Source: an uncultured delta proteobacterium (lineage in GTDB: Bacteria > Desulfobacterota > Desulfobulbia > Desulfobulbales > Desulfurivibrionaceae). Taken from it: DNA of 64,000 bases. The first letter of the stretch is position 1; the number at the start of each line of letters is the position of its first letter. Below are positions 4,525 through 11,016 of the stretch, in pieces. The DNA lies in assembly GCA_903869265.1 (NCBI GenBank), contig CAIPYE010000017.1, positions 62,001 to 126,000 on the forward strand, read 5' to 3'. A model generated the notes under the pieces. That model did no database searches. It saw only the letters and a list, made by a program, of their open reading frames with translations, and was not told the origin of the DNA. Made by a program: the position numbers and the translations under genes.

Positions 4525-4566
4525 TGGTTCTAGTTATAACGCAACAACGCACAGACGCTAAGATTT

Positions 4567-7500
4567 TTGTTTTGCCCTTTGCGCCCATTGAGCTTGTGCT
4601 GTATATTGAAGGAAATCATTAAATTCCAGATGGGAATTCAGGGAGATCAGTGCATGTTTGAAGAATGGCAACGTTTGGAGCAGGACGGAACCCCGGTGTA
4701 TGTGCAGCCGGAAAAGCCGGACTGGTTCGTGCCGGATCAGGAGGCGGACTGCCTGTTGCAGGAGCTGCAACAGGGGAAAGGTTCCGCTGCGGACAAAGCG
4801 CTTTTTGAAAAAGATTTGGGCGGCAGGATGCTGGCGGCCCAGCGACTTGTCTCCCAGCTTGTTGCCGAACCAGCCTCTCCGTATCCAGGTCGTCACCCAT
4901 TGCTCGCTCTGCATAGTCTGAAGGAATGCTGGTTTCACCTCACCGACCGCTGCAATCTGGCCTGTCGCCATTGCCTCTTTGCCTCCTCCCCGGCCCAGGC
5001 TGCCACCCTGTCTCTGGAGGACCTGGCCCAAGGGATCGCCGAGGCCAAGGCGTTGGGCTGCACCCTCTTTTATTTCACCGGGGGCGAACCCTTTGTCTAT
5101 CCGGGTTTTGGCGCGATGGTGGCCGAACTGCTTAGTGATCCAAAGATCCATGTGGTGGTATTGAGCAATGGCCTGCTGGTCCGGGAGCATCTTGCCGAGC
5201 TGGCGGCCCTGCCCAGGGAGCGCTTCCACCTCCAGCTCAGCCTGGATGGCTTGGCGGAGCAGCATGAGGCGCTGCGGGGGAAAGGGACCTTTACCGGGTT
5301 GCTGGACAGCCTGGGGTTGCTCAGAGAATTGGGTTTCCCCCTTACCCTGTCCGTGGCGGTGAACCGAGACAATGTGGGCGAATTGGCCGAGATTGTCGCC
5401 CTTGCAGTCGAGCAGGGGATCGGCAATATTCACCTGCTCTGGCATTTTGTCCGGGGCAAGGGCAGCCCGGAGCAGTTTGTCGCTCCGGCCCTGATCCTCC
5501 CCCAACTGATCCGGGCCCAGGAGATGGCGGAAAAATGCGGGGTGCGCATCGACAATGTGGAAACTCTGCGCAGCCAGGTGTTCAGCACCCCCGGCACCCG
5601 GCACGACCTGTCCAACACAGCCTGGGAGTCGCTGGCTGTGGGGCCGGACGGGCTGATCTATCCCTCCCCTGCCCTGGTGGGCATCGCTGATTTGGCCTGC
5701 GGCACACTGGGCGACGGTCTGGAAACGGTGTGGCACCAGAGTCCGGTTTTGGAGAAGATCCGCAAGGCAACCCTTGCGGCGAGCGAGGTCTACCAGGCCA
5801 ATCCCCTGCGTTTTTTGGTGGGCGGCGGCGATCTGGACCACAGCTACCTGGCCGGCGGCGCCCTGGTCGGGCATGATCCCTATGTTGCGCTGTATAACGG
5901 ACTGGCCCTTTGGCTGATCAGTCGGCAGGCCCGCCAATACCCCAGCCGGGCCAAGGGTGAGATCCTGCTCCGCATGGGCGAGGTGCGCCACGACTGCCCG
6001 GACACCGGTCAGGAGGTGGCGCTTACCCATTGCAACTGCGTGATCTCCTTGGCCGAGGACCAGGGGCATGCCACGGTGCGGGAGTTTTATGGCCGCGCAG
6101 CGCTCACTGCCAACGAGGAGATCGTCAACCCCTTTGCCCCGGATCAGGCCCTGGCCAATTTCATCCCGGCGGATTCCCGGAAAAAATCCTACGGCTGCGG
6201 CAGCCCGGTCAAGGATGCCGAGCCGCAGCCCGGCGAGGTCCTGGTGGACCTGGGAAGCGGCAGCGGGGTCGAGTGTTTCATGGCTGCAGCCCAGGTGGGG
6301 CCGTCTGGGAGGGTGATCGGCATCGACATGACCGAGGAGATGCTCCATCTGGCCGAGGTGGCCAAGGCAACGGTGGCCAGCAGGTTGGGTTATGACAATG
6401 TGGAGTTCAAAAAGGGCTTTCTCGAAGACATCCCCCTGGAGGATGCCACTGCCAGTGTGGTGATCTCCAACTGCGTGATAAACTTAAGCCCGGACAAGCG
6501 GCAAACCCTGCACGAGATCTTTCGGATCTTAAAGCCCGGCGGCAGGCTGGTGGTGTCCGACATTGTCACCGACGACACCATCCCGGTGGCCATCAAAAAT
6601 AATGAGCAGTTCCGGGGCGAATGTCTGGGCGGGGCGATGCAGCAGGAGGCTCTGCTGGGTATGCTCCGGGGGGCCGGTTTTGTCGGGGTCAGCCTGGTCA
6701 AGCGCTTCCCCTACCGGATCGAAGGCGATACCCGGTTTTATTCCCTGACCTTCCGGGCCTATAAACCGGAAGAGGCGCGGAAGGTGGAGGTCATCTACCG
6801 GGGGCCGTTTGCCGCGGTGTGGACGGAAAGCGGGGGTATGCTGTTCAAGGGGAGGCGCGCAACGGTGGACTTAAGCGAGGCGGAAAGTCTGGCCGAGTCC
6901 TTGTTTGTCCTTGATGCTCAGGGGGCAGTGGCCAACCTGGCCATGGAGAATAGCTGCTGCGCCTCGCCAGCCGGAGCAGAAATTCCTCTGCTCCAGTCCA
7001 GCGGCTGTTGCACCGGCGGGCAGGATGAGCCTGCGCCGCGCAAGATCGTTTCCCTCCCCCCCCTGCGCCAGCCGGTGAACGGTCGATATCCGTCGGGCTG
7101 CATGGTCTGCGGCAAGGAGATCGGCTATCTCGCCCATGAGCGGGAGGTGGCCTGCCATTATTGCGGCGGAATCAAGAAAACCAATGCGGTCTGTGTTGGG
7201 GGCCATTATATCTGCGATGGTTGCCACCAACAGGACGGCCTTTCCGCCATCCGACTGTTGTGCACCGAAACCAAAGAGCAGGACATGCTGATCCTTTTGG
7301 ATACGATCCGACGCCATCCGGCCATTTCCCTGCACGGTCCGGAGCACCATGCCATGGTGCCGGGCATCATCCTGGCCACCTACCGGAACCTGGGCGGCAG
7401 AATCAGCCGGGAAGACATCCTCACCGGCATCGAGCGGGGCAGCAAGGTGCCGGGCGGGGTCTGCGGTTTTTGGGGCAACTGCGGGGCCGCGGCTGGGGTG

Positions 7501-7803
7501 GGCATTGCCTTCAGCGTCCTGCTTGCGGCCACGCCGCTGACTCCCAAACCTCGCCAGCAGGTGCAGGAGATCACCTCCCGGGTGCTGGGCGAGATCGCGC
7601 TGACCCAAGGGGCGCGCTGCTGCCAGCGGGAAACGGTTACGGCTTTAAGGGAAGCGGCGCTTCTCTCCCACCGCCTTCTGCCCGTGTCGCTCCTGGCCGA
7701 AGCTGATTTTGTCTGCAAGCAGTTTTCCGCCAACCGGGAATGTATAGGGGGCCAGTGCCCTTTGTGGGGCAAGGCGGAATTCCGTGTGGGCGGTGTACAA
7801 TGA
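4567..7803 (+). CDS. Three-domain fusion: radical SAM enzyme, ArsM-like SAM methyltransferase, DUF5714
   Basis: CNLACRHC radical SAM motif; [13 protein letters not shown]...[12 protein letters not shown]...[11 protein letters not shown]...ECLGGA ArsM-like; C-terminal [11 protein letters not shown]...[14 protein letters not shown]...RCC typical of DUF5714. The true start may be a downstream ATG ([10 protein letters not shown], ~4654). Confidence 0.88.
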
Positions 7804-8489
7804 AGCCGTTGATTGCCCCCAAAAAAGGAATTGGCAAGGCCATTGTTTTTGCCCTGTTTCTTGCCGCAATGATCACCCTGTTCCGCTTTACCCCGGTGCG
7901 GCAATACATCTCCCCCGACTATCTGCGAGGTCTGGTGAACTCCTTTGGCCCCTGGGGACCGCTGGTCTTCGTGCTCCTCTATGCCGGGGGCATCTGCCTT
8001 TTTCTCCCTGCCACCCTGTTCACCGGCCTTGGCGCCCTGTTGTTCGGCACCCTGTACGGTTTTCTCTACAACGAGCTGGGCGCATTGCTCGGGGCTTCCC
8101 TGGCTTTTTTCATCGGCCGCTACCTGGGCCGGGATTTTGCCGCGGGCCTGATCGGCGACCGGCTGAAAAAGTACGATGACCGCATCGCAGCCAACGGCTT
8201 TGCCACGGTGCTCTATCTGCGGTTGGTTTTTTTCCCCTTTACCCCGCTCAACTTCGGCATGGGGTTGACCAGGGTGACCTTCAGGGAGTATTTCTTCGGC
8301 ACCCTGCTCGGCATCATTGCCGGAGGCTTTGTCCTCACCTTTTTCTTCGCCACCCTGGCCGAGGCCTGGAGATCCGGCGACTGGCGGCAACTGGTGGGCT
8401 GGAAGGGTGCGTTCTCCCTGGCGCTCTTTGTCGGCTCCTTCTACATCCCCGTGGTGATCCGGAAAATTAAGCCCGAGGGTGCAGGTTGA
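7800..8489 (+). CDS. TVP38/TMEM64 (VTT domain) family membrane protein
   Basis: FLPATLFTGLGALLFGTLYGFLYNELGALLGASLAFFIGRYLGRD; ATGA overlap with preceding stop. Confidence 0.88.
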   Translation: MKPLIAPKKGIGKAIVFALFLAAMITLFRFTPVRQYISPDYLRGLVNSFGPWGPLVFVLLYAGGICLFLPATLFTGLGALLFGTLYGFLYNELGALLGASLAFFIGRYLGRDFAAGLIGDRLKKYDDRIAANGFATVLYLRLVFFPFTPLNFGMGLTRVTFREYFFGTLLGIIAGGFVLTFFFATLAEAWRSGDWRQLVGWKGAFSLALFVGSFYIPVVIRKIKPEGAG

Positions 8490-8504: not shown

Positions 8505-9329
8505 ATGCCTGAACTGCCGGAAGTGGAAGTGGTCTGTCAAGGGCTTGCCCCCCTGGTGCTCAAGCGCAAAATTCTTTCGGTTTCCTTTAGCAACAAAAGG
8601 TTGCGTAAGCCTTTTCCCAGGGCCAAGATGTATCGCCACGTTGAAGGCGCCTTTATTCTGGGGGTGGAGCGTCGCGCCAAATACATCCTCCTGCGTCTGA
8701 CCGGCAAGGCCGTCATGTTGTTCCACCTTGGCATGACCGGCAAGATAGGCCTCTTTGCCCGCGAGATCCCCCGCCGTAAGCACGATCATCTCCGTTTTCT
8801 GCTGGATAACGGCAAGGAGATGCGCTTTAACGATGTGCGGAGGTTCGGCTGTGTCGAGGTATATTCGGAAAAAGAGCTGCGGGAGAACGATCCCTTTGCC
8901 GGATTGGGGGTGGAGCCTTTTTCCGAGGATTTTTCTGCCGACTATCTGCTGAAAAAGGCGCGGGGCAAGAGGCAGCCGGTGAAAAGCTTTCTTATGGATA
9001 ATGGGGTGGTGGTGGGGTTAGGCAATATCTACGCCAACGAGACCCTCTTTGCCGCCTGCACCCATCCGCAAACACCGGTCAACCGGCTGTTAAAGATGGA
9101 TTGGCAGCTCATTGTTAAAAAAAGTCGGCATATTCTCAAAAAAGCCATTGCCATGGGAGGCTCCACCATCTCCGATTACGAGAACGTCAGCGGCGAGGCC
9201 GGATATTTTCAGCTGGAGCTTACGGTGTATGGTCGGCAGGGCCAGCCCTGCCTCCGTTGCGGCCAGGCGATCGAGCGCAGCGTCTTGGGTGGGCGGGCTA
9301 CTTTTTGCTGTCCTTTTTGCCAAAAATAA
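8505..9329 (+). CDS. mutM: Formamidopyrimidine-DNA glycosylase
   Basis: MPELPEVEVV N-terminus, GLGNIYANE, C-terminal zinc finger CLRCGQAIERSVLGGRATFCCPFCQK. Confidence 0.96.
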   Translation: MPELPEVEVVCQGLAPLVLKRKILSVSFSNKRLRKPFPRAKMYRHVEGAFILGVERRAKYILLRLTGKAVMLFHLGMTGKIGLFAREIPRRKHDHLRFLLDNGKEMRFNDVRRFGCVEVYSEKELRENDPFAGLGVEPFSEDFSADYLLKKARGKRQPVKSFLMDNGVVVGLGNIYANETLFAACTHPQTPVNRLLKMDWQLIVKKSRHILKKAIAMGGSTISDYENVSGEAGYFQLELTVYGRQGQPCLRCGQAIERSVLGGRATFCCPFCQK

Positions 9330-9518
9330 GGGGGAAATGGCGTTTTTTTCTTTGGATGTGTATATTTTCCCTTTACTCAGGCGAGGAGCGGATGTATAAA
9401 AGTCATATTTGTCACCCCCTGACCGAGGGAAGAGTTGGCTGGGTGATCCAGGAGTGATCACTACCAAGCGTAATGCGCAATGTCGCAATTATTAAAACAC
9501 AAAGAGAGGAAGAGAACC

Positions 9519-9764
9519 ATGAAATCAGTCAAAACAACCGTTGCCTTTGCCCTGATGCTGCTCCTTGCCACCGGCCTGATCGCTTGCAAGAAGAGCGAAG
9601 AAGCTGCAGTAACTCCGCCGGTAGAGCAGGCTGCTCCCGCTGTTGCTCCGGCCGCCCCGGTGGCTCCGGCTCCTGAAGCCGCTGCTCCTGCTGCTCCTGA
9701 GGCTGCTGCTCCTGCCGCTCCTGCCGCTCCTGCTGCTGAGCCTGCTGCTCCTGCTGCAAAGTAA
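9519..9764 (+). CDS. Small predicted lipoprotein with Pro/Ala-rich C-terminus
   Basis: MKSVKTTVAFALMLLLATGLIACKK: signal peptide with LIAC lipobox; followed by PAAPEAAAP repeats. Confidence 0.8.
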   Translation: MKSVKTTVAFALMLLLATGLIACKKSEEAAVTPPVEQAAPAVAPAAPVAPAPEAAAPAAPEAAAPAAPAAPAAEPAAPAAK

Positions 9765-9778
9765 GTCGCTGTTTCATT

Positions 9779-9815
9779 TCCGGGCTGGGGTCTTCCCAGC
9801 CCGGAAATTTTTTTC
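9779..9815 (+). terminator. Rho-independent terminator
   Basis: TCCGGGCTGGG-GTCTT-CCCAGCCCGGA followed by a T tract. Confidence 0.88.
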
Positions 9816-9855
9816 CTTCCTTTCGCTTTCCCCCCCCATGCTCCAGAAATAAACG

Positions 9856-11016
9856 TTAATCCATGATCTCCAGCAGCGCCTTGGCTGCCTGGGCGAGATC
9901 CGCTGTGCTGTGATGGCGGGTAATGGAGAATCTCAGTCGTGCTGTGCCGTCCGGCACGGTGGGTGGCCGGACGGCCGTGACGAACATCCCCTGTTTTCTG
10001 AGCAGTCCGGCTTTGTCCAGTGTTGCGCCGCTCTTCCCTACCAGAAAGGGGATGATCTGCGAGGGGCCGAGGTCCGCGCTGTATCCCCCGTTGCGGAGCA
10101 TGGTCTTGAAGTAGGCGATTTTTTCATGCAATTCCTGGCGAAAAGCTGGTTCTTGCTGGATGAGCTGCACCGCAGCAAGAGAGGCTGCGGCAACCGCAGG
10201 CGGCAAGGCCGTAGAGAAGATAAAGCTCCTGGCCCGGTTGAGCAGATATTCAATCATCTCCCTGTTGCCTGCCACATAGGCGCCATAGCTGCCAAGGGCT
10301 TTGCCAAAGGTGCCCATGGCCAGATCCACCCCGCTGCCCACCCCGTCCTCTTCGATAACCCCGCCGCCGTTAGCGCCAAACACTCCGGTGGCATGGGCCT
10401 CGTCCACCATGAGCAGGCAGCCGAACCGCTCCTTGAGCTCCACCAGCTCACGCAGCGGGCAGCGGTCGCCATCCATGCTGTAAATGGACTCCACCACGAT
10501 CAGGGGTGTGCCCGCCCCCCGTTTTTCCTTGAGCAACTCTTCGAGATGGTTGAGGTCGTTATGCCGGAAACGCACCAGGCGGGCGCCGGAAAGCCGGCAG
10601 CCGTCGTGGATGCTGGCATGGTTTAGCCGATCGCTGAAGATGAGGTCGTGGCGGGCCACCAGGGCGGGAATGATGCCGGTGTTGGCCATGTAGCCGGAGC
10701 CGAAGGTGAGGGCATTTTCTTTGCCCTTGAGGCGGGCCACCGCTTCCTCCAGATCATGATGTACGGCGAGGTCGCCGCTCATCAACCGGGCCGCGCCGGA
10801 GCCTGCGCCAAACCGGCGCAACCCCTCATGGGCTGCCGCGATGAGAATTGGATGTTCGGCAAGGGCCAGGTAGTCATTGGACGAGAAATCGATCAGTTCC
10901 CGAGCATCGTCTCCGGCAAGGACGAGCCGCCCTTTGCCTCGGCGGATCACCGGACGCAGGCTGCGGAGCCCTCCCTTTTCCCGTTGCTGGTTCAGCCAGT
11001 CCTTCAGATCGACCAT
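9856..11016 (-). CDS. bioF: 8-amino-7-oxononanoate synthase
   Basis: DFSSNDYLALAEHP, VDEAHATGVFGANGGG, MGTFGKALGSYGAY motifs; adjacent to bioB. Confidence 0.93.
   Translation of the reverse strand: MVDLKDWLNQQREKGGLRSLRPVIRRGKGRLVLAGDDARELIDFSSNDYLALAEHPILIAAAHEGLRRFGAGSGAARLMSGDLAVHHDLEEAVARLKGKENALTFGSGYMANTGIIPALVARHDLIFSDRLNHASIHDGCRLSGARLVRFRHNDLNHLEELLKEKRGAGTPLIVVESIYSMDGDRCPLRELVELKERFGCLLMVDEAHATGVFGANGGGVIEEDGVGSGVDLAMGTFGKALGSYGAYVAGNREMIEYLLNRARSFIFSTALPPAVAAASLAAVQLIQQEPAFRQELHEKIAYFKTMLRNGGYSADLGPSQIIPFLVGKSGATLDKAGLLRKQGMFVTAVRPPTVPDGTARLRFSITRHHSTADLAQAAKALLEIMD

What the first reader, a model, noticed from the sequence alone, without database searches (positions are those of the whole stretch)
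4567..7803. Radical SAM - ArsM-like methyltransferase - DUF5714 triple fusion
One ORF joins a CxxxCxxC radical SAM domain, a methyltransferase with ArsM hallmarks (LGSGSGxxCF, [17 protein letters not shown]) and a DUF5714 domain rich in Cys/His motifs. The fusion implies sequential chemistry on one substrate, plausibly an organo-metalloid such as arsenic or selenium. The end product and the role of DUF5714 are unknown to me.
Basis: partly seen in the sequence, partly recalled or inferred. Interest (0 to 1): 0.74.

Follow-up and report, generated by a model that had tools for sequence, protein, structure and literature searches.

The report
Fused ArsM–radical-SAM enzyme, likely arsenosugar pathway
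A sulfate-reducer-type bacterium carries one large protein that joins an arsenic-methylating enzyme to a radical enzyme and a cysteine-rich module, and genome comparisons indicate that it replaces the usual separate enzyme (ArsS) in making sugar-linked organic arsenic compounds.

Summary
One ORF encodes radical SAM + ArsM-type methyltransferase + zinc ribbon/DUF5714; the true start is probably ATG 4654, not 4567. It is a real, conserved protein: relatives at about 40-65% identity occur in 34 of 395 sampled genomes of the phylum and in two other phyla, with invariant CX3CX2C, invariant equivalents of three of the four ArsM arsenite cysteines, and invariant DUF5714 cysteines. The arsenic reading becomes specific. 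Fusion genomes almost never have canonical ArsS (1/34; p=6e-5). Among ArsS-less genomes, the fusion tracks the arsenosugar-pathway glycosyltransferase TIGR04283 (28/33 vs 41/243; p=9e-15; within-family exact p=1e-5). Several fusion genes lie beside TIGR04282/TIGR04283, or beside the VTT/MerA-like pair that also flanks canonical arsM-arsS. In this genome the fusion is the only ArsM-like protein, no ArsS passes cut-off, and a TIGR04282-TIGR04283 pair is present. The radical-SAM half is not ArsS: its lineage is SPASM-type, and stand-alone relatives sit in TIGR04282-TIGR04169-rSAM-TIGR04283 clusters. Best explanation: a multidomain enzyme that methylates arsenite and forms the further C-As bond, replacing ArsS. 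Its product and the role of DUF5714 (no PDB fold match) remain unproven.

The parts
4654..7803 (+). CDS of the fusion protein (1049 aa; the ORF as listed opens at TTG 4567)
   Evidence: homologs align from M30 (ATG 4654)
4669..4896 (+). N-terminal segment, probably a degenerate PqqD-like peptide-recognition fold
   Evidence: aligned to the N-terminus of stand-alone relatives; PqqD is over cut-off only in the G016 relative; no PqqD hit in this protein itself
4939..5403 (+). radical SAM core, residues 125-279; CX3CX2C (C129, C133, C136) at 4951-4974
   Evidence: Pfam PF04055; Cys invariant in all relatives that cover the site
5623..5847 (+). SPASM-like region without its cluster cysteines ([20 protein letters not shown] ... 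GGGDLDHSY)
   Evidence: aligned to the YPCA and GGGC motifs of stand-alone relatives; fold match to anSME/PqqE
5995..6039 (+). invariant C477, H488, C491 just before the ArsM domain
   Evidence: invariant in 29 sequences
6064..6966 (+). ArsM-type methyltransferase with its C-terminal domain; C544 (6196), C570, C636 (6472), C686 (6622); CC motif C797/C798
7099..7227 (+). zinc-ribbon-like Cys/His cluster, C845-H887
   Evidence: invariant C/H; weak zinc-ribbon family matches
7249..7767 (+). DUF5714 domain (residues 895-1067), with HGPEHH, CGF.G.CGAA and RCCQRE motifs
   Evidence: PF18978 1.5e-59; weak C_GCAxxG_C_C resemblance; no PDB fold match
7800..8489 (+). VTT-domain (TVP38/DedA-like) membrane protein; its ATG overlaps the fusion's stop codon (ATGA), probable same operon
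   Evidence: PF09335; sequence; the family also flanks canonical arsM-arsS and other fusion genes

Best explanation
The protein is a multidomain C-As bond-forming enzyme that stands in for the ArsM + ArsS pair of arsenosugar-type biosynthesis. The ArsM domain binds As(III) through C544/C636/C686 and methylates it (inferred from homology and conserved residues). The radical SAM domain, a SPASM-lineage enzyme that has lost its auxiliary-cluster cysteines, then transfers a SAM-derived radical group to the methylated arsenic, most likely 5'-deoxyadenosyl as ArsS does (inferred). TIGR04282/TIGR04283 glycosyltransferases and partner genes (VTT membrane protein, MerA-like flavoprotein) process or export the product (inferred). 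The zinc ribbon/DUF5714 module is most likely a thiol-rich module that holds As(III) or supplies reducing thiols between the two active sites (speculative). Shown here: the architecture, the conserved residues, the mutual exclusion with ArsS, the co-occurrence and clustering with the glycosyltransferases, and the separate ancestry from ArsS.
For: ArsM domain: best solved relatives are all arsenite methyltransferases, with three active-site Cys aligned; fold match E 1e-18. Profile: fusion in 34 and ArsS over cut-off in 119 of 395 genomes, both in only one (expected about 10; p=6e-5); among ArsS-less genomes TIGR04283 is in 28/33 with the fusion vs 41/243 without (OR 27.6, p=9e-15); within-family exact test p=1e-5. 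Neighbourhood: TIGR04282 and/or TIGR04283 near 10 fusion genes; VTT and MerA-like genes shared with canonical arsM-arsS loci L105 and L174. In a Thermogutta MAG the parts are separate: VTT, MerA-like, ArsM, rSAM, fused TIGR04282/TIGR04283. Stand-alone relatives of the rSAM half sit with TIGR04169-like and TIGR04282/4283 genes in ArsS-less genomes, and match it along 437 columns (E 2.5e-54), against 143 core columns for ArsS. Own genome: the fusion is the only ArsM-like protein, no ArsS over cut-off, TIGR04282-TIGR04283 pair at L161.
Against: No biochemistry. TIGR04282/4283 are named 'arsenosugar biosynthesis' by annotation, not shown by test here, and in this genome they are unlinked to the fusion. 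41 genomes have TIGR04283 with neither ArsS nor fusion; the stand-alone rSAM or the G016 form accounts for only about 8. Two fusion genomes (G228, G371) lack TIGR04283. The ArsM score is below the NF008823 cut-off (229.7 vs 263) and the fourth Cys is missing. Loss of SPASM cysteines could mean different radical chemistry.
Confidence: 0.68

Rival explanations
1. The radical SAM half forms a different C-As bond (for example 3-amino-3-carboxypropyl as in arsinothricin, or a modified sugar or lipid carbon), so the product is an organoarsenical outside the arsenosugar series.
For: The rSAM is not ArsS and has its own Cys-less SPASM-like region. Radical SAM enzymes are known to make both adenosyl-As and aminocarboxypropyl-As bonds (PMC12159101).
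Against: Linked glycosyltransferases and the exclusion with ArsS favour the arsenosugar type. ArsL was not among the best 25 family matches.
Confidence: 0.15
2. The protein is mainly an arsenic detoxification methyltransferase; the radical SAM and DUF5714 parts modify or protect it (for example redox or metal loading) and form no further C-As bond.
For: ArsM is the best-conserved enzyme half; Cys-rich modules are fused to ArsM in other families (ArsM_AhpD, ArsM_DUF2284, MTase_UXPK).
Against: It does not explain the complementarity with ArsS or the link to TIGR04283, nor the radical SAM genes in ArsS-less clusters.
Confidence: 0.08
3. The radical SAM half modifies a peptide or a small non-arsenical molecule, and the ArsM-like half methylates that product instead of arsenic.
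For: The rSAM lineage (SPASM with PqqD-like N-terminus) is typical of peptide maturases. DUF5714 also occurs in the unexplained Trs system with another rSAM and methyltransferase.
Against: Arsenite-binding cysteines are invariant; arsenic-pathway neighbours; no precursor-peptide gene family stood out among recurring neighbours (small ORFs under 80 aa were not examined).
Confidence: 0.07

Closest known systems
ArsS, arsenosugar biosynthesis radical SAM (seleno)protein (TIGR04167)
   Same: Same probable pathway slot: partner of ArsM and of TIGR04282/TIGR04283; same radical SAM superfamily
   Different: The fusion's rSAM is from a SPASM-like lineage, lacks DUF3641 and the ArsS motif CNxxCxHCHVxAGP; homologous only in the core
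ArsM / AS3MT arsenite methyltransferase (NF008823; PDB 5evj, 4fs8, 8xt7)
   Same: Catalytic domain, C-terminal domain, three arsenite-binding Cys
   Different: Embedded in a larger protein; lacks the fourth Cys (CmArsM C44); family score below cut-off
Stand-alone rSAM/SPASM of TIGR04282-TIGR04169-rSAM-TIGR04283 clusters (L170, L164, L167; no family name found)
   Same: Full-length homolog of the fused rSAM region
   Different: Keeps YPCA and GGGC cluster motifs; not fused to ArsM or DUF5714; genomes lack DUF5714
MbdU metal-binding double selenoprotein / Trs-system DUF5714 protein
   Same: Zinc ribbon + DUF5714
   Different: Separate protein, with selenocysteine in MbdU; different operon (TrsS, DVU_1556 methyltransferase)
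ArsM fused to DUF2284 or AhpD domains (NF041536, NF041537)
   Same: ArsM joined to a Cys-rich or redox domain
   Different: No radical SAM domain; selenoproteins

Membership tests
ArsS (TIGR04167) | scores over the curated cut-off (300 bits) | tested here: not met
   only core-level similarity; no own-genome hit near cut-off (best E 2e-13)
ArsS (TIGR04167) | C-terminal DUF3641 domain and CNxxCxHCHVxAGP motif | tested here: not met
   sequence here is [14 protein letters not shown], no DUF3641
ArsS (TIGR04167) | found with ArsM and TIGR04282/4283 | tested here: met
   in relatives and by profile; in the own genome the pair is unlinked
ArsS (TIGR04167) | 5'-deoxyadenosyl transfer to dimethylarsinous acid | not testable with these tools
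   needs biochemistry
ArsM arsenite methyltransferase | three active-site Cys (CmArsM C72, C174, C224) | tested here: met
   C544, C636, C686 invariant in 29 sequences, aligned
ArsM arsenite methyltransferase | fourth Cys (CmArsM C44) | tested here: not met
   no Cys at that place
ArsM arsenite methyltransferase | NF008823 cut-off 263 bits | tested here: not met
   229.7 bits over residues 521-726
ArsM arsenite methyltransferase | ArsM fold | tested here: met
   Foldseek E 1e-18 to 5evj
Radical SAM superfamily | CX3CX2C cluster motif and PF04055 | tested here: met
   C129, C133, C136
SPASM radical SAM | C-terminal auxiliary-cluster cysteines | tested here: not met
   motif positions are YPSPA and GGGD
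DUF5714 (PF18978) | over gathering score | tested here: met
   200.8 bits vs 26.2
MbdU (NF045648) | over cut-off, with selenocysteine | tested here: not met
   127 vs 600 bits; no Sec codon
ArsL (arsinothricin radical SAM) | family similarity | tested here: inconclusive
   not among the best 25 NCBIfam matches; not searched separately

The most novel reading that the evidence does not exclude
A multidomain organoarsenic synthase: one polypeptide methylates arsenite and attaches a SAM-derived group by a radical enzyme of different ancestry from ArsS, with a DUF5714 module of undescribed fold relaying or reducing the arsenic; the product may be an organoarsenical not yet described.
Probability: 0.3. 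Interest if true: 0.82.

Novelty: new variant of a known kind. Interest (0 to 1): 0.64.

Why it matters
It would explain how many anaerobic bacteria that keep arsenosugar-pathway glycosyltransferases do without ArsS. It would imply a second origin of the radical C-As bond-forming step, widen the organisms that may make organic arsenic, and give a single-polypeptide target to test the pathway and to find a role for DUF5714.

Tried and rejected
Selenocysteine: in-frame TGAs near the C-terminus of two relatives are their stop codons. ArsS membership: rejected. DUF5714 as a general arsenosugar part: absent from 40 of 41 genomes chosen for ArsS or stand-alone rSAM, the one hit being a fusion itself. 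DUF5714 fold: no PDB match better than E 0.7; only weak sequence resemblance to C_GCAxxG_C_C. Literature: no paper found for DUF5714 or an rSAM-ArsM fusion in the open library, which lacks most subscription journals. Long antisense ORF 4558-6348: no support, probably a high-GC artefact. A first parse of reverse-strand loci was wrong and was redone. Tree placement of the fusion next to the stand-alone rSAM lineage has only moderate support (90/65).

Full report
Observation. The ORF at 4567-7803 (+) is open and carries the three domains described: Radical_SAM, an ArsM-type methyltransferase and DUF5714. Relatives start at M30, so the gene probably runs 4654-7803. The next gene, a VTT-domain membrane protein (PF09335), starts at 7800 inside the fusion's stop codon (ATGA overlap), which suggests one operon.

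The fusion is real. A search of 395 genomes of the phylum found the fusion in 34 genomes of 17 families, mostly full length at about 40-65% identity. Named records include Desulfogranum japonicum DSM 18378 and MAGs labelled Candidatus Eisenbacteria and Chitinivibrionales. In a 29-sequence alignment the following are invariant or nearly so: C129/C133/C136 (radical SAM), C477/H488/C491, C544/C570/C636/C686 (ArsM), C798, the zinc-ribbon set 845-887, and C966/C972/C1018/C1019/C1050/C1059/C1064 in DUF5714. Copies split near the ArsM/DUF5714 linker exist (L135, L146).

ArsM half. The best solved-structure relatives are all arsenite methyltransferases. C544, C636 and C686 align with CmArsM C72, C174 and C224; the fourth cysteine, C44, is missing. 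A predicted model of the whole protein (mean pLDDT 83) matches ArsM structures at E 1e-18 and SPASM radical SAM enzymes (anSME, PqqE) at about 1e-11. No other ArsM-like protein is in the genome.

Radical SAM half. It is not ArsS: it matches an ArsS alignment over 143 core columns only, lacks DUF3641 and the ArsS motif, and ArsS forms a separate clade. It matches, over 437 columns at E 2.5e-54, stand-alone radical SAM/SPASM proteins of about 518 aa; two unrelated SPASM proteins give 280 columns and 2.8e-32. The stand-alone proteins keep YPCA and GGGC where the fusion has YPSPA and GGGD, so the fusion family has lost auxiliary-cluster ligands. All seven stand-alone loci examined lie beside a TIGR04169-like 'arsenosugar biosynthesis-associated peroxidase-like protein' gene and a TIGR04282 and/or TIGR04283 gene, and these genomes have no ArsS over cut-off.

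Link to the arsenosugar pathway. Ten fusion loci carry TIGR04282 and/or TIGR04283 within about 8 kb. Others carry the VTT/MerA-like pair that also flanks canonical arsM-arsS in L105 and L174. In a Thermogutta MAG (L074) the order is VTT, MerA-like, a further gene, ArsM, radical SAM, fused TIGR04282/TIGR04283, with ArsM and radical SAM as separate genes. Across 395 genomes the fusion and ArsS exclude each other (1 shared of 34 and 119; Fisher p=6e-5), and among ArsS-less genomes TIGR04283 is over cut-off in 28 of 33 with the fusion against 41 of 243 without (p=9e-15). Because related genomes are not independent, the test was repeated within families: 14 observed against 7.35 expected, exact p=1e-5 (1.9e-5 with the strict threshold). 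In the window's own genome a TIGR04282-TIGR04283 pair is present at L161:9018-10314, unlinked to the fusion.

DUF5714. It has a zinc-ribbon-like N-terminus and a helical Cys-rich body. The model is confident (pLDDT 92.7) but has no PDB match (best E 0.73). Nine of 27 members show weak similarity to C_GCAxxG_C_C, a putative redox-active family. As a separate protein it sits beside TrsS and near a DVU_1556-type methyltransferase (the methyltransferase scored 152.4 against a cut-off of 155), and the related MbdU is a selenoprotein (PMC13188914). It is absent from 40 of 41 genomes chosen for ArsS or stand-alone rSAM, so it is tied to the fusion rather than to the pathway in general.

Mechanism. 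Known chemistry: radical SAM enzymes adenosylate arsenic in arsenosugar biosynthesis (ArsS) and transfer 3-amino-3-carboxypropyl in arsinothricin biosynthesis (review PMC12159101, citing Cheng 2021 and Yao 2024). By analogy the fusion methylates As(III) and then adds a SAM-derived group, most likely 5'-deoxyadenosyl; the glycosyltransferases act afterwards. The steps beyond architecture, residues and genome context are inference.

Limits. No activity data. The pathway names of TIGR04282/4283/4169 are annotations. About 33 of the 41 genomes with TIGR04283 but neither ArsS nor fusion remain unexplained. The fusion list was read by hand, excluding genomes with ArsM-only or DUF5714-only matches. 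MAG incompleteness adds noise.

Noticed in passing
L148:6677-8792 and 8767-10804 (G208; also G252, L147): A separate DUF5714 gene lies directly after TrsS and near a DVU_1556-type methyltransferase, so DUF5714 belongs to the unexplained Trs system too.
   Followed up: partly
L170:1323-4674 (G022); also L164-L169: ArsS-less clusters: TIGR04282, TIGR04169-like, an unnamed radical SAM/SPASM protein of about 518 aa, and TIGR04283; a second ArsS replacement without fusion.
   Followed up: yes
L162:7459-9942 (-): An 828-aa PqqD/rSAM/SPASM-ArsM two-part fusion without DUF5714 that keeps the SPASM cysteines.
   Followed up: partly
L074:4525-13573 (Thermogutta MAG): Unfused order VTT, MerA-like, ArsM, radical SAM, fused TIGR04282/TIGR04283; the radical SAM has an ArsS-like C-terminal Cys motif.
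   Followed up: partly
L140:11471-12160 (-): An extra separate DUF5714 gene just upstream of a fusion gene (G029).
   Followed up: no
e.g. G053, G184, G282: About 33 genomes have TIGR04283 but neither ArsS nor the fusion nor the stand-alone rSAM; another missing enzyme may exist.
   Followed up: no
window 4558-6348 (-): A 596-aa ORF antisense to the fusion gene, probably a base-composition artefact.
   Followed up: no
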